Positions 11,660 through 24,026 of a DNA stretch of 64,000 nucleotides are shown here, in pieces. This DNA is from Rhodohalobacter sp. SW132 (GTDB taxonomy: Bacteria > Bacteroidota > Rhodothermia > Balneolales > Balneolaceae): NCBI RefSeq assembly GCF_003390325.1, contig NZ_QUOK01000001.1, positions 310,001 to 374,000 of the forward strand, read 5' to 3'. The first letter of the stretch is position 1. Each line of letters begins with the position of its first letter. A program made the position numbers and the translations under genes. A model generated the notes under the pieces. It had not been told where the DNA came from and ran no database searches. It was given only the letters and a program-made list of their open reading frames with translations.

Positions 11660-12607
11660 TTACCCGAGGAATCCGAGTACAGATTGAGGACCCATATTCG
11701 CTTGTGCCAGTGCAGACGTTGAGGTCTGCTGCAAAATCTGCAGTCTTACAGACTCACTCTGCTCCTTGGCAAAGTCGGCATCCATAATTCTACTTGAAGC
11801 CGAACTGTTGGCGCTGATCGATTGCGAGAGCGTTACTTCACGAATACTCAGCGATGATTGCGTCATACCGATTTCGTTCACTCGCTCATTCATCCCTTCA
11901 ATCGCTGTATCCACAGCGTCGATAAAGCTTCGGAAATCATCAGCCGTAGCTGCATCAAACGACAGACCACCCTGTCCGCCTGTGCCCGCAGCTGTGGCGG
12001 AAATCGCTCCCGATGCCGCTCCTATCTCAGTATCACCACCTGCTGCAAACAACTCACCGATGTTTACCGCTGACAGATCCGTCGTCAGCGTATCGGAAGA
12101 CCGCTCGCCTACCTGGAACGTAAGTGAAAAATCACCGGTATTTGTCGCTGCACCAGAAGAGGCATCTACAGCACCATTCAACAGCTCAGAATCCTGGAAT
12201 ACGGTTTGGTTGGCAACATCATTGATATCTTCGGCCAGCTTCTCAATCTGGGCGCCGATGTATCCACGCTCATTTTCTCCAAGCGTATCGTTGGCTGCCT
12301 GTGTGGCAAGAGCTTTCATTTCGATCAGGCTATCCATAACTGTATCAAAACTTGACTCGGCAATATCAAGAACCGACTTGGCGTCGCCTACATTCTGAAG
12401 CGCCTGCTCCAGGCCGGCAACCCGGCTGTTTAATTTCGTTGCAATTGCATATCCGGCAGCATCATCTTCCGCACGGTTGATCCGGAGACCGGTAGAGAGT
12501 TTCAGCTGGTTGTCAGCAAGGTCTCTGTTGATTCGATTCAGCGACAACTGGGAATCCAGCGACTGAATATTGGTATTGACTCTGTTTAAATCGCCAAAAC
12601 TTGACAT
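11660..12607 (-). CDS. fliC: Flagellin (copy 1)
   Basis: A 315-residue flagellin, the subunit of the flagellar filament, exported through the flagellar type III apparatus. The N-terminal D0/D1 helix (VNTNIQSLDSQLSLNRIN, residues 10-27, then STGLRINRAEDDAAGYAIA) and the C-terminal helix (QILQQTSTSALAQANM, ending SVLGFLG) are well conserved. The central domain is short and rich in Ser, Thr, Ala and Gly (about residues 150-215), which offers O-glycosylation sites. The protein is identical to that of the third flagellin gene. It has its own sigma-28-type promoter and terminator, so it is monocistronic. A 15-copy heptamer array starts 100 bp upstream of the ATG. Confidence 0.97.
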   Translation of the reverse strand: MSSFGDLNRVNTNIQSLDSQLSLNRINRDLADNQLKLSTGLRINRAEDDAAGYAIATKLNSRVAGLEQALQNVGDAKSVLDIAESSFDTVMDSLIEMKALATQAANDTLGENERGYIGAQIEKLAEDINDVANQTVFQDSELLNGAVDASSGAATNTGDFSLTFQVGERSSDTLTTDLSAVNIGELFAAGGDTEIGAASGAISATAAGTGGQGGLSFDAATADDFRSFIDAVDTAIEGMNERVNEIGMTQSSLSIREVTLSQSISANSSASSRIMDADFAKEQSESVRLQILQQTSTSALAQANMGPQSVLGFLG

Positions 12608-12659
12608 GTTATATCACCTTTTGTTTGTTCGTATAATTAAGTTGCATTCGTTAAAAGGT

Positions 12660-12686
12660 TTATCGAAGGCGAAAAGGCGATCTTAA
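12660..12686 (-). promoter_or_regulatory. Sigma-28 (FliA) type promoter of flagellin 1
   Basis: On the minus strand TTAAGATC - 11 bp - TTCGATAA, close to the enteric FliA consensus TAAAGTTT-N11-GCCGATAA. The expected start leaves a leader of roughly 45 nt before the ATG at 12607. The same boxes with the same 11-bp spacing precede the other two flagellins. Confidence 0.75.
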
Positions 12687-12706
12687 ATTTTTTTTAATTT
12701 TTTTTG

Positions 12707-12811
12707 CAGGGTGCAGGGTGCAGGGTGCAGGGTGCAGGGTGCAGGGTGCAGGGTGCAGGGTGCAGGGTGCAGGGTGCAGGGTGCAGGGTGCAGGGTGCAG
12801 GGTGCAGGGTG
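12707..12811. repeat. Perfect tandem array of 15 x CAGGGTG
   Basis: Fifteen uninterrupted copies followed by CAGGCAGGAAG, the same junction as the first array. Its edge is only 20 bp upstream of the -35-like box of the flagellin 1 promoter, so changes in copy number would alter DNA next to the RNA polymerase site. Confidence 0.97.
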
Positions 12812-13001
12812 CAGGCAGGAAGTTTGACATCGCCATCAACGCAAAGTCAAATTTAATACTAAAAATCGCAGATATTTCCAGACTTTCGATATTCACTGCA
12901 GTTCATTCATTAAACTTAGAAGCATTTGACTTACCCCTTGTGCCTTGCGCCCTGCCGGTGCCTTTCCCGGTCCCGGCGAATGCCGGGGAACCTTGAAACA
13001 A

Positions 13002-13034
13002 AAAAAAGCCTCCCTGATCTCTCGGGAGGCTTTT
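13002..13034 (-). terminator. Flagellin 2 rho-independent terminator
   Basis: AAAAGCCTCCC paired with GGGAGGCTTTT around a short loop; on the minus strand a run of seven Ts follows. It lies 36 bp after the flagellin 2 stop codon. Confidence 0.85.
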
Positions 13035-13069
13035 GAATAATGGTACTGTTTATGTGTCAGATTCAGTTC

Positions 13070-14014
13070 TTACCCGAGGAATCCGAGTACAGATTGAGGA
13101 CCCATATTGGCTTGTGCCAGTGCAGAGGTTGAAGTCTGCTGCAGAATCTGAAGCCGAATAGATTCACTCTGTTCTTTGGCAAAATCCGCATCCATAATTC
13201 GACTCGATGCTGCACGGTTGGCACTAATGGATTGAGAGAGCGTCACTTCCCGAATACTAAGTGATGACTGCGTCATACCGATTTCGTTTACACGCTCATT
13301 CATCCCTTCAATCGCTGCATCCACTGCATCGATAAAGCTTCGGAAATCATCCGCTGTTGCAGAATTGAATGTTAACGATCCCTGGCCTCCGGTGCCTGCA
13401 GCTGTTGCTGTAATCGATCCGGCTGTGGCCCCTATTTCATTATTGGTACCTTCAGTAAACAACTCACCGATATTTACTGCAGACAGATTAGTCGTCAGCG
13501 TATCTGTAGATCGTTCACCCACCTGGAAAGTAAGGGTTAAATTACCGGTGTTCGTTGGATTTCCGGCTGAATCTACTGCACCATTCAACAGCTCAGAATC
13601 CTGGAATACGGTTTGGTTTGCGATATCATTGATATCTTGCGCCAGCTTCTCAATCTGTGCACCGATGTATCCGCGCTCATTTTCTCCAAGCGTATCGTTG
13701 GCAGCCTGGGTAGCAAGAGCTTTCATTTCGATCAGGTTGTCCATTACCGTGTCAAAACTTGACTCGGCAATATCAAGAACCGACTTGGCGTCGCCTACAT
13801 TCTGAAGCGCCTGCTCCAGGCCGGCAACCCGGCTGTTTAATTTCGTTGCAATTGCATAACCGGCAGCATCATCCTCAGCACGGTTAATTCGAAGACCTGT
13901 TGACAATCGAAGCTGATTGTTTGCCAGATCTCTGTTAATTCTGTTCAGTGACAACTGGGAATCCAGCGACTGAATATTGGTATTGACTCTGTTTAAATCA
14001 CCAAAACTTGACAT
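13070..14014 (-). CDS. fliC: Flagellin (copy 2, divergent)
   Basis: A 314-residue flagellin that matches the other two copies almost residue for residue in the N-terminal D0/D1 (one or two changes, e.g. ADNQLK to ANNQLR) and in the C-terminal helices. It differs mainly in the central surface-exposed part (about 145-215, where SAGNPTNTGN replaces ASSGAATNTGD) and at ANRAASSR near 280. It therefore packs into the same filament but presents a different variable surface. It has its own terminator and its own sigma-28-type promoter. Overall identity to the other copies is roughly 90 percent by eye. Confidence 0.97.
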   Translation of the reverse strand: MSSFGDLNRVNTNIQSLDSQLSLNRINRDLANNQLRLSTGLRINRAEDDAAGYAIATKLNSRVAGLEQALQNVGDAKSVLDIAESSFDTVMDNLIEMKALATQAANDTLGENERGYIGAQIEKLAQDINDIANQTVFQDSELLNGAVDSAGNPTNTGNLTLTFQVGERSTDTLTTNLSAVNIGELFTEGTNNEIGATAGSITATAAGTGGQGSLTFNSATADDFRSFIDAVDAAIEGMNERVNEIGMTQSSLSIREVTLSQSISANRAASSRIMDADFAKEQSESIRLQILQQTSTSALAQANMGPQSVLGFLG

Positions 14015-14069
14015 GATAATTCACCATTTATTTAGTTGTTCATCTATACAATCTTATAGATATATGGAG

Positions 14070-14096
14070 TTATCGTTACCGAATTCGTGATCTTAA
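14070..14096 (-). promoter_or_regulatory. Sigma-28 (FliA) type promoter of flagellin 2
   Basis: On the minus strand TTAAGATC - 11 bp - AACGATAA. The -35-like box is identical to that of the other flagellins although the surrounding spacer and leader differ, which shows selection on the boxes themselves. The leader to the ATG at 14014 would be about 50 nt. Confidence 0.75.
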
Positions 14097-14144
14097 ATAG
14101 ACTTAAAATTATTTTTTATAAAATTAACATGTTTTTTAGTATTG

Positions 14145-14181
14145 CAGGGTGCAGGGTGCAAATGTTGACGCAGTCAACATT
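14145..14181. repeat. Two-copy CAGGGTG remnant joined to a perfect palindrome
   Basis: Two heptamers (14145-14158) are followed by AATGTTGAC-GCA-GTCAACATT (14161-14181), a hairpin with perfect 9-bp arms. In the two longer arrays the equivalent position holds a related but broken sequence (GTTGACATCGCCTCAAC). This may be the contracted or ancestral form of the array element. Confidence 0.7.
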
Positions 14182-14216
14182 TTGTCACCTGCGCCCTGAA
14201 CCTTGGACCCTGAAAC

Positions 14217-14251
14217 AAAAAAAAGCCTCCCGATACTATCGGAAGGCTTTT
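14217..14251 (-). terminator. Flagellin 3 rho-independent terminator
   Basis: Same hairpin as at 11596-11630, part of the direct repeat: a strong GC stem followed by eight Ts on the minus strand. Confidence 0.85.
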
Positions 14252-14280
14252 GGAATGTTGATCCATTATGTAATCTGTAC

Positions 14281-15228
14281 TTACCCGAGGAATCCGAGTA
14301 CAGATTGAGGACCCATATTCGCTTGTGCCAGTGCAGACGTTGAGGTCTGCTGCAAAATCTGCAGTCTTACAGACTCACTCTGCTCCTTGGCAAAGTCGGC
14401 ATCCATAATTCTACTTGAAGCCGAACTGTTGGCGCTGATCGATTGCGAGAGCGTTACTTCACGAATACTCAGCGATGATTGCGTCATACCGATTTCGTTC
14501 ACTCGCTCATTCATCCCTTCAATCGCTGTATCCACAGCGTCGATAAAGCTTCGGAAATCATCAGCCGTAGCTGCATCAAACGACAGACCACCCTGTCCGC
14601 CTGTGCCCGCAGCTGTGGCGGAAATCGCTCCCGATGCCGCTCCTATCTCAGTATCACCACCTGCTGCAAACAACTCACCGATGTTTACCGCTGACAGATC
14701 CGTCGTCAGCGTATCGGAAGACCGCTCGCCTACCTGGAACGTAAGTGAAAAATCACCGGTATTTGTCGCTGCACCAGAAGAGGCATCTACAGCACCATTC
14801 AACAGCTCAGAATCCTGGAATACGGTTTGGTTGGCAACATCATTGATATCTTCGGCCAGCTTCTCAATCTGGGCGCCGATGTATCCACGCTCATTTTCTC
14901 CAAGCGTATCGTTGGCTGCCTGTGTGGCAAGAGCTTTCATTTCGATCAGGCTATCCATAACTGTATCAAAACTTGACTCGGCAATATCAAGAACCGACTT
15001 GGCGTCGCCTACATTCTGAAGCGCCTGCTCCAGGCCGGCAACCCGGCTGTTTAATTTCGTTGCAATTGCATATCCGGCAGCATCATCTTCCGCACGGTTG
15101 ATCCGGAGACCGGTAGAGAGTTTCAGCTGGTTGTCAGCAAGGTCTCTGTTGATTCGATTCAGCGACAACTGGGAATCCAGCGACTGAATATTGGTATTGA
15201 CTCTGTTTAAATCGCCAAAACTTGACAT
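14281..15228 (-). CDS. fliC: Flagellin (copy 3, identical to copy 1)
   Basis: A 315-residue flagellin whose translation is identical to the gene at 11660-12607, inside the second copy of the direct repeat. It has the same D0/D1 ends, short Ser/Thr/Ala/Gly-rich centre, sigma-28-type promoter and terminator. The difference from copy 1 is the upstream neighbourhood: beyond the T-tract there is no heptamer array, and the next gene upstream is the helicase-PLD gene. Two identical copies give a dosage effect and a substrate for recombination that would delete or re-assort flagellin 2. Confidence 0.97.
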   Translation of the reverse strand: MSSFGDLNRVNTNIQSLDSQLSLNRINRDLADNQLKLSTGLRINRAEDDAAGYAIATKLNSRVAGLEQALQNVGDAKSVLDIAESSFDTVMDSLIEMKALATQAANDTLGENERGYIGAQIEKLAEDINDVANQTVFQDSELLNGAVDASSGAATNTGDFSLTFQVGERSSDTLTTDLSAVNIGELFAAGGDTEIGAASGAISATAAGTGGQGGLSFDAATADDFRSFIDAVDTAIEGMNERVNEIGMTQSSLSIREVTLSQSISANSSASSRIMDADFAKEQSESVRLQILQQTSTSALAQANMGPQSVLGFLG

Positions 15229-15497: not shown

Positions 15498-18400
15498 TCA
15501 ACAAGAAGCTTTTACTCGTTTATCCATATCCCTCTTAAATGCTGTCACCAGTTTTTCAATAGTTTCAGTATGTGAATTATTCTTATTCCAATATACAAGT
15601 GACCGTTCATAACGTTGATATTTATCTGCCTTACTTCGTTGGGCGGAAAGCCAATTAAACGAACCTTCACTTATCAAAAAATGATCGGCACACATCGTTT
15701 TATTATGAAAGTTTTGGGCTACATTAACTGATGCTCCGGCTTCTTTCAAAAGCACTATTCCCTTTTTAGCGGAAGATTTTAATTGAGATTTGCTATCCTT
15801 ATTCAGAAATGCATCCACATAACAAGTCACCTTAATACCACGATTTTTTGCATCCCTGATTAATTCAGGAATCTTATCAGATTGGACCGCATAATCTGTA
15901 ATAAAAGGAGAAGCAATGATAATATGCTTTTGAGCAGACTTAAAACAATATCTTAGAAGCTTGCGATGGCGTTTTAGTTCCGCTATACGTTCAACCGAAA
16001 CTTCAGAGTCAAGCTGTTCATTCTTGATAATTTTATGAGGCTCAATGTCCACCAGTTCATTACCGGAGTCCTCAAATAGATAGGTTGCCAAAAGTCCTGA
16101 GGGATCATTTGTATTATTAGGGTCGAAAATATGCATGTCGCCAAAAACCAGAAAACTTTCCTTAGCCCGGGATACGGCTACATTGAGCATCATCACATCC
16201 TGATCAAAGAAATAACTGCCGGTATGGTTTCGATCATATACAGATGAAAAAATCACCACATCCCGTTCAGCACCTTGAAGGGCATGCACGGTACCCACAG
16301 TTATTTTATCTAATCCATTATTCTTTCCTTTTAAAATCTTTTTAATAATTGTTTTCTGCTCCCTAAATGGCGTAACAACGGCTATTATATCTTCTATACA
16401 TTGTTCATCAGACTTATTTATTAAACGTGTTTTATTCTTTGAGATCCAATCAGCAACAGTTTGGGCCTCCTGTTCGTTGTAGCGACTGGCGCTATTGTCT
16501 CTTTGTGACATACCCTGAACATGAGCAAATCCAAAACGTGGTAAGTGGCATGATTCCCCGCTCTTCCGTTGAGGCTGAAGCTCACCATGGTATACAAGTT
16601 TATTACAGTAGTCGATTATTTCCGGCACACACCGCCAATGTTCCGAAAGGAACATCCCACCGACATCAATATTCTCTAACTTATATGGACTGCTTTTTTG
16701 AGCAACTCTCATTACGCTTCCGCCATAGGTTGTTATACCCGCTTGCTTAAGTTGCTGATAGGCATAGTCATCAAAGCTGAGTGTATTTACTGCATTTTCT
16801 TTGTCCAATTATTTTACTAACACCCCAAATCGGTTGTATTTGGCTCGTATCTCCTACAACCAATGCTTTCCTGGCCAGTGCAAAGCCAGCTCCTCCAATT
16901 TCCGGAGAAACCTGACCTGCTTCATCTACGATAAGCAGATCAGCAAAATTTATCAGCGGATCATTGACACTATCTGCATAATGGCTGAAATACTTGGGAA
17001 GCATATAAAAGGTGCTTACAAAACATGGGGTTAATTTGGCATAACGAAGCCATTTTTTTTCTGTGTCTTTTTTTGAGTAGTTTTTGTTCTGTTTTAAAAA
17101 ATCCTCCATTTCCAAAAGCCACCGACCTTCCCAATAATGAATGGCATATAGAAACATCTTATGTCTAATTTGCGAATCGAGAAGTTTTAGATCCCTGTCA
17201 TTCTCACCATCATTATAAACTTTGATATTCTGTTTAAACCAAGAATTGATTTTCAAAAGTAGTTCTTTGTACTCTTTTAAAGCTGAAAGAATTTTATCAG
17301 CATTCTTCTTTTCTTTAAATATACCCTGGCTCGTTTCAAAAAAATATGCTAGTAGTTTATCATGCGATGTGGAATTTTCTTCGCTTGGTGTCCAATAGCT
17401 ATCTTTAAAAAAGAACTGATTATGAAGCTTGATCTCATTCCTGAACCGGGGAACTACCGTACCCAACCAACGAATATAAAACGGGAGTCCTTTATAGCTT
17501 TCCTTCCATTCTTCCCTAACAGAATTGAGATCATCTAACTTTCTGGATATATCAATAACTTCTTTATCTGCCGCATTAATTTTAGCCGTTATAACCTCAA
17601 GTTCTTTATCAACCTGAAACTGATTCTCAATCACGCTTGCCGGATCTTCATCCGTAAATTGATTTTGTTTATGTAATAACATTTCCCCTTCTTCAAGGGT
17701 CTTATACATTTTCTGTAATTCTGTATGGAGATGGCTTTTAATCTCCCCGACGGATGAGAATGATTGGCTAAAGTATTGTAGTGCCTTCTCACAGAACACT
17801 TTTTTTGCCCTATCAAGAAAGGGTTGATTTTCAATTTCGCCAGGAAAGCCTTTGCCTGAGAAACTGGTTTTTAGCACCCCTTCCTCATTATCACTTTTCA
17901 GTACTTCGTTTGAAGGACAATATAATGCGAAACTTGAAACCGGCTCCGGCAACCAACGATTTACGAGGATATCAGGATGCACATCCCCTTCAAAACTTTG
18001 AATTATGTTGGTAATAGCCTGATTATTTGCTGATGACGCCAAGATTACTGGTGGCTCTTCATTGGCAAGGGCTTTTTCAACAAATAGATGTGCCACTATG
18101 CCTTGAAGAAGTGTTGTTTTACCTGTTCCGGGAGGCCCATTCACTGCCAGTATTTCTCCATCTTTAAGCTCACTAAAATGGTGCAGTGCCTGACGTTGCG
18201 AATCTGCTAAGGGGTTATCTCCCTTCATTTGACCCATATGAGATGTAAGCTCCTGCTTTATACGTTGCTCACTTATCTCTTTTCTTTTATTACCTGGGGA
18301 GAGATCACAGAATGAATTCAATAATTCGTTAGATTCATTTTCATCAATAAGATGATTGTATAATTGAATAATAGATTCATTTGCTCCAGATTTCACACCC

Positions 18401-19101
18401 GAATCAAGTGCAATGTAGGCATTCTCATCAAGTATGAATTCCTCACCTCCAAATGTAAAATGCTCTACCTCGTTTCCGTTGATATTTAATGCAAATGTAT
18501 CAGCTGATGCGAAATGCTTTAAAAAATTGATCCCCCATTCGAAATAGCTGCTCCACTTAAGGTCTACATCTACAGCTGGATTCTTCGCTGTATATTCTTC
18601 TTCTTCAGAAGTAGTTCCCAACAGCTGCTCTTTTTTTTGCTTCGAAGTGGAACTTTCGGCAAATAAATAATCACGGTCAATCCAAGGTGAAAAGTCACCA
18701 TCTGCAATTAAATTTCCAGACTGTTCAAGCCTGGCCGGTATCCAGAGAGGTATTAAGGAATTTTTTACTTTATTCTGTTTCCTTTTGTTTTTAAGAAGCC
18801 TTCGGAAGGGACAGATAAGTACCGGACAGAACATTGGCTCATCGTCTGCATCAAAGGTATGAGTTTCAGTTTTTTTATCGCTGCCATCTTTATCTTTTAA
18901 TTCTGAGCGATACTTATGAAATAATTTCTCAGTGATGCTATGATTTACTTTGCCTTCTGTGATTTCTTTGAAAGAAATTTTTAAAGCATTTTTAAAATAA
19001 GAATAAGAATTTACCTTCCTGCGTTCTGCTTCTAATAATGAATTTCTGAGATATCTTAGAACGGTATGACTGCTGTTCTTCTTCCTATCTATAATTGGCA
19101 C
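15498..19101 (-). pseudogene. COG1112-type SF1 helicase with C-terminal PLD nuclease, frameshifted (Mokosh type II-like)
   Basis: Two abutting frames form one gene of about 1200 codons. Frame 1 (19101-16771, GTG start, 776 residues) carries an N-terminal VLRYLRNSLLEAERRKV-type region, Walker A GPPGTGKTT near residue 320, a long insert, and the Walker B variant DEAG near 725. Frame 2 (16808-15498, apparent TTG start) continues with helicase motifs (SEHWRC, VGTVHALQGAERD, NVAVSRAKE) and a PLD-like domain containing SPFITD and one HxK-x4-D motif (HNKTMCAD). Near 16805 the minus strand reads ATTGGACAAAG; one G fewer restores I-I-D-K-E-N across the junction. Helicase plus PLD in one chain is the architecture of Mokosh type II (MkoC) anti-phage proteins. 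It may be a pseudogene, a sequencing error, a phase-variable site or programmed slippage. Confidence 0.75.
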
Positions 19102-19465: not shown

Positions 19466-20230
19466 TTACTCAAAATTAACTTCAGAGGCTATTTTCAGAT
19501 CTTTTATGTTATCAACCTCAAACCATCCTCTTTGAATCGAAACATACGTGACCTTAGAGGTTTGAGATAGAAAATTAAGCAGGTCGGTCATGTACGTATT
19601 TTTGAGTTCGCGTCCGGAATTCCAGGTGTCAGCTATGCAGGCCGAATCATCTTTACAACTGTAGTATGCTTTCTTCATGATATCACACCCTTTGGCCGAG
19701 AATTTCATCAACCCTGTAAATTGCCCATCTATTTCTTTCGTGGAATTCGCTTTTTGACCAAGACTCTTTACCTGGTTATTCGGCCCCGTGACAAATGTCT
19801 CTGCATCTGACAGCGGATCTCCACAACGCTTATTCCAATATTGCTCCCAGAGTTCATCTGAGGCCAAAACGATATCTTCTTTGCTGTCTAATACTTTTTT
19901 CAGCACTTTTTTCGAATAGATAATATCTCCGTATGCAACTATAACTTCTCTATTAAATTCCTTTTCTGCACACATGAGGCTGTAGACCATATTTGTTGAA
20001 TCAAAATCAATATTTATTACTTTTTTTATTCTCGGATCCTGAATCTTCTCTTCTTTATACCCGGCCACTACTGTAATATCTACAATGCCATAAGAGTTTA
20101 AGGTTTCAATTTGCCATTCAAGCATTGGTTTTCCATTTACTTTAACCATGCATTTGGGGACATCATCAGTAAGTGGGCGGAGTCGTGTTCCTTGTCCTGC
20201 TGCGAGAATTATTGCTTTTGCTGAACTCAT
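19466..20230 (-). CDS. Sugar/glutamine-phosphate nucleotidyltransferase, probable CTP:phosphoglutamine cytidylyltransferase
   Basis: A 254-residue nucleotidyltransferase (GT-A-like fold). The nucleotide-binding ILAAGQGTRLRP is at residues 8-19, a PKCMVKVNGKPMLEW lysine region follows, YGDIIY carries the metal-binding Asp near 97-102, and GWFEVDNIKDL is at the C-terminus. LicC-like cytidylyltransferases have this form. The gene is the last of a run translationally coupled with a glutamine-amidotransferase-like hydrolase and a PEP-synthase-like kinase. In Campylobacter the same trio (Cj1416, Cj1417, Cj1418) makes CDP-amidate, and this would be the Cj1416 counterpart, joining CTP and glutamine phosphate. 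The fold is certain; the substrate rests on context. Confidence 0.75.
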   Translation of the reverse strand: MSSAKAIILAAGQGTRLRPLTDDVPKCMVKVNGKPMLEWQIETLNSYGIVDITVVAGYKEEKIQDPRIKKVINIDFDSTNMVYSLMCAEKEFNREVIVAYGDIIYSKKVLKKVLDSKEDIVLASDELWEQYWNKRCGDPLSDAETFVTGPNNQVKSLGQKANSTKEIDGQFTGLMKFSAKGCDIMKKAYYSCKDDSACIADTWNSGRELKNTYMTDLLNFLSQTSKVTYVSIQRGWFEVDNIKDLKIASEVNFE

Positions 20231-20901
20231 GTTTTCTGACTGGCATTAAAAATTTTTGAAAATAAAAAAATGTCTTCTTCTCTGAATGAAGTATATCGTT
20301 CGGGATGCCACATCATACCAAAAATTGGATGTGAATTGTGACGAACAGCTTCAGCTTCATCCTTGTAACGGCCGGCAACCACTATCTCTTCAGGCAGGTC
20401 ATCAATCAAGATTCCTTTACGATGATAAGAATTGCAGGATCTTTTATCGCCGAAAATATTGGAAAAGTGTTGTTCTAAAAAAGAAACCTCATGCTCTTTC
20501 GCTACATGTATTCCCGGCTCAACATCGGAAAGCTTTCCACCAAAAAAGGTGCATATTAATTGCATTCCCCGGCAAATTCCGATCACCGGTTTCTGGTTGG
20601 TAACAGCCCATTGAAGTAACTCGGTTTCGGTTTTATCTCTTTCTATGGCAACATCTTCTTTCATTAACAAATCGAGATCATCACTTTTATTTTCCGAGAC
20701 GTTGTTGCCACCTGAAAAAATGACCCCGTCTAATTGCAAGTGATCTGTATAATCAATTGGGCTTGATATTGCATTGGGTATTGGATAGAGCTGGATACCA
20801 ATCTTGGATGCAAATGCATACCAACTTTGGTCCAGGACATCTCGTCGTTCATTTACCTTTTCTTCATATACAACCCGCTGCGTTATACCAATTCGTTTCA
20901 T
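20227..20901 (-). CDS. Class I glutamine amidotransferase-like hydrolase, probable gamma-glutamyl-CDP-amidate hydrolase
   Basis: A 224-residue class I GATase/gamma-glutamyl hydrolase fold (PuuD-like). The catalytic triad is Cys110 in GICRGMQ, His199 and Glu201 in WHPER, and the SGGNN loop is at residues 63-67. No synthetase domain is fused and no amidation partner is encoded nearby, so it is a stand-alone hydrolase. It overlaps its neighbours by 4 bp on both sides, between a PEP-synthase-like kinase and a nucleotidyltransferase. That order is the signature of the phosphoramidate pathway, where Cj1417 releases glutamate from gamma-glutamyl-CDP-amidate to give cytidine diphosphoramidate. A generic gamma-glutamyl-GABA hydrolase is the alternative, but it would not explain the coupling. 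Confidence 0.78.
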   Translation of the reverse strand: MKRIGITQRVVYEEKVNERRDVLDQSWYAFASKIGIQLYPIPNAISSPIDYTDHLQLDGVIFSGGNNVSENKSDDLDLLMKEDVAIERDKTETELLQWAVTNQKPVIGICRGMQLICTFFGGKLSDVEPGIHVAKEHEVSFLEQHFSNIFGDKRSCNSYHRKGILIDDLPEEIVVAGRYKDEAEAVRHNSHPIFGMMWHPERYTSFREEDIFLFSKIFNASQKT

Positions 20902-23900
20902 CCCAATACACGTATTTGTTTATTGGCACAATTCAATTCTACCTTTTCTGCCTTTTGCAGCCTATCAAAAAGTTCTTCTCCACATCCAATAGCTGCAGGC
21001 AGTCCAAATTCAGCACAGCGAATCGTCATGTGAGACGCAGCACCACCATATTTGGTAATCAACCCTTTTATAGGGTGCAAGAATATCCAATCATAACCCG
21101 GATCTGCACCTTCTGTAAGCACAATTTTACCAACAAGTTCTTCTTTAGAAGAAATCTCTGATAGTTTACAAATAGCAGATGTCACCGATTTAGTACTTAC
21201 ATAATTAGGCTCTGCTGAATTATGTTCAATTATATCCAGATCATCGGGTGATAAAATGATTTGAGGGGTCTCAATTTTATTCGAATCTTCGTGCCAGGTT
21301 CTTCCATCCTGCACTTTTTGTTTTATGTATAGAACCGGTTCCCGTGCAATAGTTTGTGTATTCAGCCGTAAAATATCTTCTACAAATAAGTACGACATAT
21401 CCTGCCTAGTAAAACCATGATGAAATCCCCATTCTGTAATCAATGTGAGCACGGCGTCCAGGTTTTTGGTGAATTGGAATTTAGCGTATTCCCTTGCCGC
21501 TGTAGCCTTGCGAATGAATTCCAATAATTGAGGGGCACTAAACTTCATTTCCATCGTTTCAATTTCCTGCTCTATCCTGGCCATTGTTTTTTCAGAAAAT
21601 AACGTTGATGAGGCCTCTATACTCTTGATTGCTGGCTGATTTGTTGCTCTTTGCGAAGATTCCAACGGAAAATAATATTCCGGCTTTTCCCTATAACTAA
21701 ATGTTGTGATATCGTAACTTCCCGGACGCAGATGGCCAAATTCATTCAAAAAATCTTCTCGCGATAATTTGCCCGCCAGAACAAGATCCATCTTTTCTAC
21801 CAGTTCTCCGGCAACAGTCTCAATTGTATTTAAATACTGATCTTTCTCTGTTTTTGTTATGGCGCCTTTAGCAACCAATCCTTTCATCATAGAGGATGCT
21901 ATAAACCCATATCGTGCCATAATGGAAAATGGAATGGTTCCAAAGTTTATGCAATCATCAATCAGAATATTAATAATTGACGGGATCTCATCGATCTCAT
22001 AATTCTGTTGGAGTAACTTTTCTCTTCGCGGATTTAATTTTTCGGTCTCTTTAATGAGTTCATCCACCGATAGAGTATCCCCAACTACAGCCTGCTCTGT
22101 TAGCTGATGCAAACCAGATTTGAGTTCATTGATCTCTTCGTTCGTAAATCCTGCATCAATAAGCCTTTGAAGGTGGTGATCGATATCCGGGCTAAAGCAT
22201 GTAATGGCAATATCAAACTCGATCTTATCATGAAGATGTGGATTCTCTTTCAGCCTTTGGACGTAATGATTTATAAGTTTTTCGGAAAGCTCGGGTGAAA
22301 GATCTTTAGGAATTAGATTATTGAAACTATTCCTAACATCAATATATGGATGCCCGCCAATGCTAAACATGAGTTTTTCCGGGGCCGGATCGTGATATCC
22401 CATTTTGCCCCGGGCAACTCGCCACGCAGAATCGGTAATCAAATATTGGTATAACGAAATATCTAAAGGCTTTGGGCGCACTCCAATCATTTCAGCCGGA
22501 TTCCAATCAGGCATATCCGCCAAAAGTGTATTCTCACCATAGATATGAGGATATGGTTTACATCGCGATTTAATCTTTCTTTTGGCTTCCTCTACCCTGC
22601 TATGAAAATCTTGCACCTCTCTTAGCCCGGTGTGAGTGGTGATGGGCCGTACCTGAACAACATACAGCACACCGGAGGTACTAAGTACGAATTCAATATC
22701 GAGCGAGGAATAGCCGGTTATAGATTCCAACTCCTCAACGGCCTCCGTTATTTTTTGCAGTCGTAAATCATTGGGGCGCTTTTGTCCATTTTTATAGATC
22801 AATATAGATCGGGAATCTCCTGTGCTCCCTGATGTCACCGTATCTGTTCTGTTTGATTGATCATCATAATTGATCAGAATATAGGGGGTCCCATTTTCCA
22901 AATGTCTGGTGAAAGCCACTCCGCTCATTTCAACATCTGTAATAAATGGTTGTACCAATACCTGATTCTCAGGATTATACGTTCCGGAACCATTGGATCG
23001 AAAGCCGCTTATCACTTCTTCCACGGCTGAATCTAACATCTTTGGCTCCCCAGCCGAAACTCCTGCAACACTAAGAAAAGCCCCGGCTTGGGATGAATCC
23101 CATGAATCTTCTTCCAGAGAACTGCTTCTAACGATTAATTCATGTCCCTGAAACCGATGTTGTATATCTTTAATAATGGTTTCTGAGTTGTGCTCCCAAT
23201 ATTTTAATGGAAAATGAATCTGGTCGGTAACCACAGATTTTTTCACAAACGGTCGAATTCGCTCTAACGTCTCTGCTTTGGTACCAAATATGAAATGGGC
23301 AAGATCTTCATGAGAATCCAGTTCGGCCCAGTCTCCACTGTGATCAAATAAAGTGAGCTCGAATTTATTTTTATCCTTTAAATAGATCAACAAATCGGTC
23401 AGGCTTCCCTGGTCATTCAATCCCGATTGTTTCTGGCCTACAAATATTTCATACAAATCCCGGACAACATGCTCTTTCAAATACATCAACCCCGAAAACT
23501 GTGCATTTGCCGCTTCAGGTGATATGTTTTGCCGGCCTACCTTTTCAGCTGTTCCGTTTGAAGAGATTACTTTCTCGGCACGGTATTGCAGCTCAGGTGA
23601 TGTAAGCCTTTCCCTCCAGTTTTTATCCACTCCGATTAAAACCGGTGACTGATTCTGCAGAAGTTCTTGAAAAACAGATGGGCGAAAGACTGTATCCGCA
23701 TACATAAACATCAGATCCCCTCCCTGCCAGTTTTCCATCGCATACCTGAGTGATCCCAACACATGGGTACTCTCCCACCTGGGATTAATCGCATAATGTA
23801 TTTGTGGATACTCCCGTATAATTTTCTCGATCTGATACCCCCCAACAAATGAGATCTGGTCGTATGCAATTCCGGCTTCACTTAAACCATAAAGAGTCCA

Positions 23901-24026
23901 GTCCAAAACTTTATGTCCGCGAACCAGCCTCTCCAGAATAGGCTGAGAATGATCTGAATAAAGCGAACTTTGTGTACGTGCTGCACCAAATATAAAAACC
24001 TGCATTTTGCCCCGTGCCTTATTCAT
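20898..24026 (-). CDS. Nucleotidyltransferase-like domain fused to PEP-synthase-like kinase, probable L-glutamine kinase
   Basis: A 1042-residue fusion. Residues ~8-245 are a nucleotidyltransferase-like domain that shares landmarks with the separate enzyme downstream (MYADTVF, NAQFSGLMYL, SLTDLLIYL, GDWAELDS). Its GxGTRL loop, however, is replaced by FGAARTQSSLYSD, so it may be inactive or altered in specificity. Residues ~260-470 are a PPDK/PEP-synthase ATP-grasp domain (RSSSLEEDSWDSSQAGAF, VEMSGVAFTR, QVRPITTH). After a helical middle region the C-terminal phosphohistidine domain has GGAASHMTIRCAEFGLPAA with catalytic His999. Campylobacter Cj1418, a glutamine kinase, has the ATP-grasp and His domains; together with the two downstream genes this points to phosphorylation of the glutamine amide. 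The ATG overlaps the upstream stop by 8 bp. Confidence 0.75.
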   Translation of the reverse strand: MNKARGKMQVFIFGAARTQSSLYSDHSQPILERLVRGHKVLDWTLYGLSEAGIAYDQISFVGGYQIEKIIREYPQIHYAINPRWESTHVLGSLRYAMENWQGGDLMFMYADTVFRPSVFQELLQNQSPVLIGVDKNWRERLTSPELQYRAEKVISSNGTAEKVGRQNISPEAANAQFSGLMYLKEHVVRDLYEIFVGQKQSGLNDQGSLTDLLIYLKDKNKFELTLFDHSGDWAELDSHEDLAHFIFGTKAETLERIRPFVKKSVVTDQIHFPLKYWEHNSETIIKDIQHRFQGHELIVRSSSLEEDSWDSSQAGAFLSVAGVSAGEPKMLDSAVEEVISGFRSNGSGTYNPENQVLVQPFITDVEMSGVAFTRHLENGTPYILINYDDQSNRTDTVTSGSTGDSRSILIYKNGQKRPNDLRLQKITEAVEELESITGYSSLDIEFVLSTSGVLYVVQVRPITTHTGLREVQDFHSRVEEAKRKIKSRCKPYPHIYGENTLLADMPDWNPAEMIGVRPKPLDISLYQYLITDSAWRVARGKMGYHDPAPEKLMFSIGGHPYIDVRNSFNNLIPKDLSPELSEKLINHYVQRLKENPHLHDKIEFDIAITCFSPDIDHHLQRLIDAGFTNEEINELKSGLHQLTEQAVVGDTLSVDELIKETEKLNPRREKLLQQNYEIDEIPSIINILIDDCINFGTIPFSIMARYGFIASSMMKGLVAKGAITKTEKDQYLNTIETVAGELVEKMDLVLAGKLSREDFLNEFGHLRPGSYDITTFSYREKPEYYFPLESSQRATNQPAIKSIEASSTLFSEKTMARIEQEIETMEMKFSAPQLLEFIRKATAAREYAKFQFTKNLDAVLTLITEWGFHHGFTRQDMSYLFVEDILRLNTQTIAREPVLYIKQKVQDGRTWHEDSNKIETPQIILSPDDLDIIEHNSAEPNYVSTKSVTSAICKLSEISSKEELVGKIVLTEGADPGYDWIFLHPIKGLITKYGGAASHMTIRCAEFGLPAAIGCGEELFDRLQKAEKVELNCANKQIRVLG

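What the first reader, a model, noticed from the sequence alone, without database searches (positions are those of the whole stretch)
15498..19101. Mokosh type II-like helicase-PLD protein broken by a single extra base
The architecture (COG1112 helicase plus C-terminal PLD) matches the single-protein Mokosh type II anti-phage system. Frame is lost at one G near 16805; removing it gives a continuous 1200-residue protein. Both halves otherwise look intact, so the lesion is very recent, erroneous, or regulatory. It lies between flagellins and a glycan island, both of which concern phage receptors.
Basis: partly seen in the sequence, partly recalled or inferred. Interest (0 to 1): 0.6.

Follow-up and report, generated by a model that had tools for sequence, protein, structure and literature searches.

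The report
Broken copy of phage-defence gene mkoC
A gene for a known kind of bacterial anti-phage protein (a helicase joined to a nuclease, Mokosh type II) is interrupted by a one-step change of reading frame in this genome, most likely a recent loss of an acquired defence gene rather than anything new.

Summary
Two minus-strand frames (16771-19101, 776 aa; 15498-16808, 436 aa) overlap by 38 bases, one step out of frame. They match the PADLOC MkoC profile end to end (positions 4-716 and 732-1130 of 1136): one Mokosh type II protein, with SF1 helicase motifs and a PLD nuclease motif present. Of 107 related loci, 97 carry both halves in one frame; one is split, at a different place. Family spacing and conserved residues pin the break to one codon boundary, 16803-16809, between the two RecA domains. 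Intact homologues exist, none close (best 36% identity). The gene is GC-poor for its surroundings, unmatched in 243 other genomes of its class, and absent from the same junction in one relative. A screen of 304 kb of this genome found no other broken gene, so a general assembly problem is unlikely; an error at this one base cannot be excluded. A regulatory frameshift is not supported. The stop in the overlap is CTT TGA, as in RF2's frameshift, but lacks its other elements. Verdict: probably recently inactivated mkoC; ordinary.

The parts
16771..19101 (-). 5' part of mkoC: N-terminal region and RecA1 helicase domain (776 aa as read)
   Evidence: ORF; PADLOC MkoC positions 4-716, E 2.3e-173; Pfam AAA_11
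15498..16808 (-). 3' part of mkoC: RecA2 helicase domain and C-terminal PLD nuclease domain (436 aa as read)
   Evidence: ORF; PADLOC MkoC positions 732-1130, E 4.6e-145; AAA_12 and PLDc_2; AlphaFold2 model pLDDT 84.6 matching Upf1 RecA2 and Nuc 1byr in the PDB
16803..16809 (-). codon boundary where the reading frame changes
   Evidence: Family spacing and the conserved Asp (78 of 82) and Asn (79 of 82) after motif III
16771..16808 (-). 38-nt overlap of the two frames
16771..16776 (-). CTT TGA: stop codon of the first frame in the core of an RF2-type +1 slip site, without the Shine-Dalgarno-like element or the following C
   Evidence: the host's own prfB has AGGGGGTATCTTTGAC; chance rate in this gene 27 of 1191 positions
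18112..18138 (-). Walker A, GPPGTGKTT
   Evidence: invariant in A1; present in 97 of 97 continuous homologues
16912..16926 (-). Walker B, DEAGQ
   Evidence: 95 of 97 homologues
16831..16854 (-). motif III, GDTSQIQP
   Evidence: 97 of 97 homologues
16629..16643 (-). motif IV region EHWRC; the conserved Arg (second-half residue 59) is kept, the neighbouring Arg is Trp here
   Evidence: PDB alignment to QYRM of helicases; R59 invariant in 37 sequences
16164..16184 (-). motif VI, NVAVSRA
   Evidence: pattern in 80 of 97 homologues
15684..15707 (-). PLD active-site motif HNKTMCAD (HxK(x)4D)
   Evidence: 43 of 45 PLD-bearing homologues

Best explanation
This is a horizontally acquired mkoC gene, encoding the single-protein Mokosh type II anti-phage system, that was recently knocked out by a one-base change of reading frame between its two RecA domains. 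Shown: the two halves of one MkoC, the pinned frame change, intact catalytic motifs, continuous homologues, foreign composition and patchy distribution. Inferred: an intact MkoC would act as an Upf1-like SF1 helicase that engages phage nucleic acid and brings a PLD-type nuclease onto it. As the sequence stands, translation stops after RecA1. The product lacks RecA2 (so no complete ATPase or helicase) and lacks the nuclease, and the defence is off. The absence of further decay means the loss is young.
For: MkoC profile matched end to end in two frames. 97 of 107 homologue loci are continuous across the point. Break pinned to one codon boundary by conserved residues and spacer length. Helicase and PLD motifs kept; substitutions at conserved sites no more frequent than in homologues. 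GC 37.9% against 44.4% for the window. Only 1 of 244 genomes of the class, its own, has a match. In relative G259 the flagellin and nucleotidyltransferase genes face each other without mkoC between them. No other frame break was found in 304 kb (262 coding-like ORFs) of this genome, so a general indel problem in the assembly is unlikely. No second MkoC in the genome: the other two hits are partial, one helicase and one PLD protein.
Against: No reads and no second isolate were available, so a local assembly error is not excluded. With no close homologue (best 36% identity) the lesion cannot be dated and no selection test could be run. The genome is a draft of 45 contigs. The frame-break screen would miss breaks of other shapes. 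Only one relative (G259) shows the comparable junction.
Confidence: 0.62

Rival explanations
1. Sequencing or assembly error: the living strain has a continuous mkoC and a working Mokosh type II system.
For: Everything but the frame looks intact. An analysis of 1106 genomes expects isolated frame breaks validated by BLASTp to be sequencing errors rather than genuine indels (PMC3711429, section 29 read). Draft assembly of 45 contigs.
Against: The site is not a homopolymer run. A screen of 304 kb found no other break, and the five next-best candidate pairs showed no shared Pfam family. Estimated completeness is 98.06%.
Confidence: 0.27
2. Recoding: ribosomes slip +1 at CTT TGA in the overlap, as in prfB, and make some full-length MkoC with 11-12 altered residues in the RecA1-RecA2 linker.
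For: The first-frame stop is CTT TGA and a +1 slip there enters the second frame. The host itself carries the classic site in prfB. Chance of CTT TGA being the first stop met is 2.3% in this gene (27 of 1191) and 0.6% in 32 neighbouring genes (76 of 13409).
Against: No AGGGGG-like element upstream and T, not C, after the stop, with a second in-frame TGA following at once; both elements are nearly universal in prfB (PMC12421855, passages). Flavobacterium johnsoniae is reported there to shift poorly even at the full prfB motif. The slip would replace the conserved Asp and Asn of the linker. The homologues are continuous. With a wider set of slippery codons the chance rate is 12.8%, and the match was noticed after the fact.
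Confidence: 0.06
3. The two products are made separately and reassemble into a split helicase-nuclease.
For: The break lies at the boundary of the two RecA domains (Pfam AAA_11 / AAA_12). The second frame opens with TTG and has an ATG at its residue 33.
Against: None of the continuous homologues has this arrangement; the only split one among 107 loci (L112) breaks elsewhere and out of frame. The second half starts without a clear ribosome-binding site, though such sites are little used in the host's likely relatives (recalled).
Confidence: 0.03
4. Phase variation: the frame is switched reversibly.
For: The break is a single-step frame change in a defence gene.
Against: There is no repeat tract or homopolymer at the pinned site and no inverted repeat flanking it in the repeat search.
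Confidence: 0.02

Closest known systems
Mokosh type II (MkoC, PADLOC PDLC03924)
   Same: End-to-end match to the profile; helicase then PLD nuclease; same motif order.
   Different: Interrupted between the RecA domains; deeply divergent from all sampled members (best identity 36%); its activity is unknown.
Mokosh type I (MkoA + MkoB)
   Same: Helicase and PLD parts with weak matches: MkoA E 5.8e-23 and MkoB E 1.2e-12 in the second half.
   Different: Far weaker than MkoC; no separate MkoB gene was seen among the nearest neighbours scanned.
Upf1/SMUBP-2-type SF1B helicases
   Same: Second-half fold and motifs match Upf1, Sen1/SETX and IGHMBP2.
   Different: Those lack the PLD domain and are not defence proteins.
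PLD-family nuclease Nuc (1byr)
   Same: The C-terminal domain of the model matches it (target TM 0.72, 21% identity); one HxK(x)4D motif.
   Different: Nuc stands alone; here it is fused to a helicase.
RF2 (prfB) programmed +1 frameshift
   Same: CTT TGA core; +1 direction.
   Different: No Shine-Dalgarno-like element, no C after the stop, not conserved in the family.

Membership tests
Mokosh type II (MkoC) | matches the MkoC profile over its whole length | tested here: met
   Positions 4-716 and 732-1130 of 1136, in two frames
Mokosh type II (MkoC) | one continuous polypeptide with helicase and PLD | tested here: not met
   Two frames as the sequence stands. Filed therefore as a disrupted mkoC gene, not as a working system
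Mokosh type II (MkoC) | SF1 helicase motifs (Walker A and B, III, VI) | tested here: met
Mokosh type II (MkoC) | C-terminal PLD domain with HxK(x)4D | tested here: met
   PLDc_2 E 8e-10; HNKTMCAD; fold match to 1byr
Mokosh type II (MkoC) | protects against phage | not testable with these tools
   needs a bench test
RF2-type programmed +1 frameshift | CUU UGA slip core | tested here: met
   16771-16776
RF2-type programmed +1 frameshift | Shine-Dalgarno-like AGGGGG three bases upstream | tested here: not met
   sequence; the host's prfB has it
RF2-type programmed +1 frameshift | C after the stop codon | tested here: not met
   T follows
RF2-type programmed +1 frameshift | frame change conserved in the family | tested here: not met
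   97 of 107 loci continuous; the one split locus breaks elsewhere

The most novel reading that the evidence does not exclude
The frame change is tolerated because ribosomes slip +1 at the CTT TGA in the overlap, so that the cell makes mostly a helicase-only fragment and a little full-length nuclease. Release-factor level would then set the dose of a potentially self-harming defence nuclease, a prfB-like control of an immune protein.
Probability: 0.05. Interest if true: 0.6.

Novelty: new member of a known kind. Interest (0 to 1): 0.2.

Why it matters
It is a clean example of an acquired defence gene caught just after (apparent) inactivation, and a reminder that profile-based defence counts can report two 'hits' where no working protein is encoded. 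If the slip-site reading were true, it would link translation termination to the dose of an immune nuclease; the evidence is thin.

Tried and rejected
Second lesion at motif IV: the window reads HWRC where aligned homologues read HRRC/HRRS, which first looked like loss of the catalytic Arg. The PDB alignment puts the Upf1-type Arg at the next residue, which is kept and invariant in 37 sequences, so this was rejected.

Ancestral programmed frameshift at CTT TGA: rejected, because the family's Asp and Asn lie upstream of that site in the second frame. Transcript slippage and phase variation: no run or repeat at the site.

Close relatives for dating or a selection test: none by nucleotide search of plasmids (10 records, at most 6% of the query in the rows listed), by protein search of phages (3 records, none covering 80%), or by single-protein scan of genome contigs (0 of 6 candidate stretches).

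The MkoC profile run over 394 phylum genomes matched 257, but it also rang in 10 of 14 control genomes. It is not specific at that threshold and I did not count it. Promoter scan: 17 sites against 14.6 in shuffles, uninformative. Literature search for 'MkoC' alone returned unrelated matches in the rows shown; no mechanism paper for Mokosh turned up in the listings.

Second-half fold: predicted from 37 aligned second-half sequences. I had 37 PLD-bearing references besides the window and gave 36 of them, leaving out L097.

Full report
Observation. Two minus-strand frames lie at the stated place: 16771-19101 (776 aa) and 15498-16808 (436 aa), overlapping by 38 nt in different frames. The first carries AAA_11, the second AAA_12 and PLDc_2. 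Both match one PADLOC profile, MkoC, over consecutive stretches (4-716, E 2.3e-173; 732-1130, E 4.6e-145; length 1136). MkoA and MkoB match much more weakly, and no NCBIfam model passes its cut-off among those shown. Papers describe Mokosh type II as a single protein, MkoC, with an RNA helicase part followed by a nuclease part (PMC10740426 and PMC10013915, passages). The original report by Millman et al. 2022 is known to me by recall and by citation only.

Where the frame changes. I collected 107 related loci from whole genomes, plasmids, genome contigs and viral contigs. In 97 of 107 both halves lie in one open frame. One is split, three match only the first half, three only the second, and three neither. 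The 97 include one exact duplicate (L006 and L072), a 1709-aa outlier (L136), and two whose PLD end is lost or in another frame (L041, L116). The split one, Xenorhabdus lircayensis L112, breaks in an A6 run before motif III, in the other direction, so it is a separate event. In 82 of 97 homologues the linker after motif III could be parsed: Asp is at position 9 in 78 of 82 and Asn at position 12 in 79 of 82, and the commonest spacer is 37 aa (39 of 82). The window's first frame gives positions 1-8, and its second frame gives Asp 9, Asn 12 and a total of 36 aa. That pins the change to 16803-16809. Intact copies exist in other genomes, but none is close: best identity 36% over 945 columns, with the window on a long, weakly placed branch (FastTree).

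Is the rest intact? Walker A and B, motif III, motif VI and HxK(x)4D are present. At columns invariant among 12 homologues the window differs at 5 of 78; one of these arises from merging the two frames, so 4 are real, while the homologues themselves differ at 0-13. A Trp beside the motif IV Arg looked alarming, but the Arg itself is kept. A model of the second half (mean pLDDT 84.6, pTM 0.64) matches the Upf1 helicase core and, at its end, the PLD nuclease Nuc (1byr, target TM 0.72). The break lies between the two RecA domains, so the first product alone should not be a complete ATPase (inference from SF1 helicase architecture).

Origin and setting. Only 1 of 244 genomes of the class, its own, matches the first half at E <= 1e-10. 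Among 58 nearer relatives the only other matches were weak (E 1.1e-4 to 4.7e-4). GC is 37.9% against 44.4% for the window. In relative G259 the same order, flagellin genes then nucleotidyltransferase, amidotransferase and the large PEP-utilising enzyme, has a 1.3-kb stretch of short frames in place of mkoC; those frames match no Pfam family. In a second relative, G428, the glycan genes continue into other genes instead. The reading is that mkoC came in sideways at a variable junction. No other defence model stands out among ten neighbours scanned; a calcineurin-like phosphoesterase gives a weak PDC-S10 match.

Error or mutation? A codon-usage screen of the window and 12 further stretches (304 kb, 262 coding-like ORFs) listed 32 adjacent pairs. 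Of the pairs with the strongest signs of an unbroken reading across a frame change, five besides mkoC were checked against Pfam and none shared a family. The screen is rough and would miss other shapes. The genome is estimated 98.06% complete. A survey of 1106 genomes expects isolated, BLASTp-validated frame breaks to be mostly sequencing errors (PMC3711429, sections 28 and 29), so I keep error at about one in four.

Recoding? The first-frame stop reads CTT TGA T. A +1 slip there would enter the second frame, and this host uses the classic AGGGGGTATCTTTGAC in its own prfB. But the upstream element and the C after the stop, nearly universal in prfB (PMC12421855, passages), are missing, a second TGA follows, and the slip would lose the family's conserved linker residues. 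CTT TGA would be the first stop met after a like frame change at 27 of 1191 positions of this gene and 76 of 13409 in 32 neighbours. I noticed it after the fact and count it as a lead only.

Conclusion. A disrupted mkoC, most likely a recent real loss of an acquired defence gene. Ordinary in kind; interest low.

Noticed in passing
L006-L008, L051-L131: Of 97 continuous MkoC-like proteins, 52 end after the helicase (mostly about 960-1030 aa) and lack the PLD domain, and no separate PLD frame was found in the DNA held around them apart from L116's own. Tenacibaculum loci here are of this kind, while a Tenacibaculum genome is reported to carry Mokosh type II (PMC10013915, passages; that genome was not examined). 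The PADLOC model may over-call the system.
   Followed up: partly
L112:4848-8380: Xenorhabdus lircayensis carries another frame-broken mkoC, at an A6 run just before motif III, unrelated to the window's break.
   Followed up: partly
L041, L116: Two further mkoC genes (Ochrobactrum plasmid, Rhodobacteraceae MAG) have lost or shifted their PLD end; broken copies may be fairly common.
   Followed up: no
L045, reverse strand near 2520-2590: The host's prfB has the full canonical programmed frameshift site AGGGGGTATCTTTGAC.
   Followed up: yes
window 19466-24026: Nucleotidyltransferase, glutamine-amidotransferase-like protein and a 1042-aa protein with PPDK_N and PEP-utilizers domains form a conserved block next to the flagellins in relative G259; 7 of 92 family genomes (own included) match the large protein.
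   Followed up: partly
window 11660-15228: Three flagellin-sized genes in tandem; the two read in full (13070-14014 and 14281-15228) are near-identical in sequence.
   Followed up: no
L131-L134: MkoC-like proteins occur on predicted viral contigs; 14 viral-contig loci encode relatives, and three of these (L132-L134) have the PLD domain in one continuous frame.
   Followed up: no
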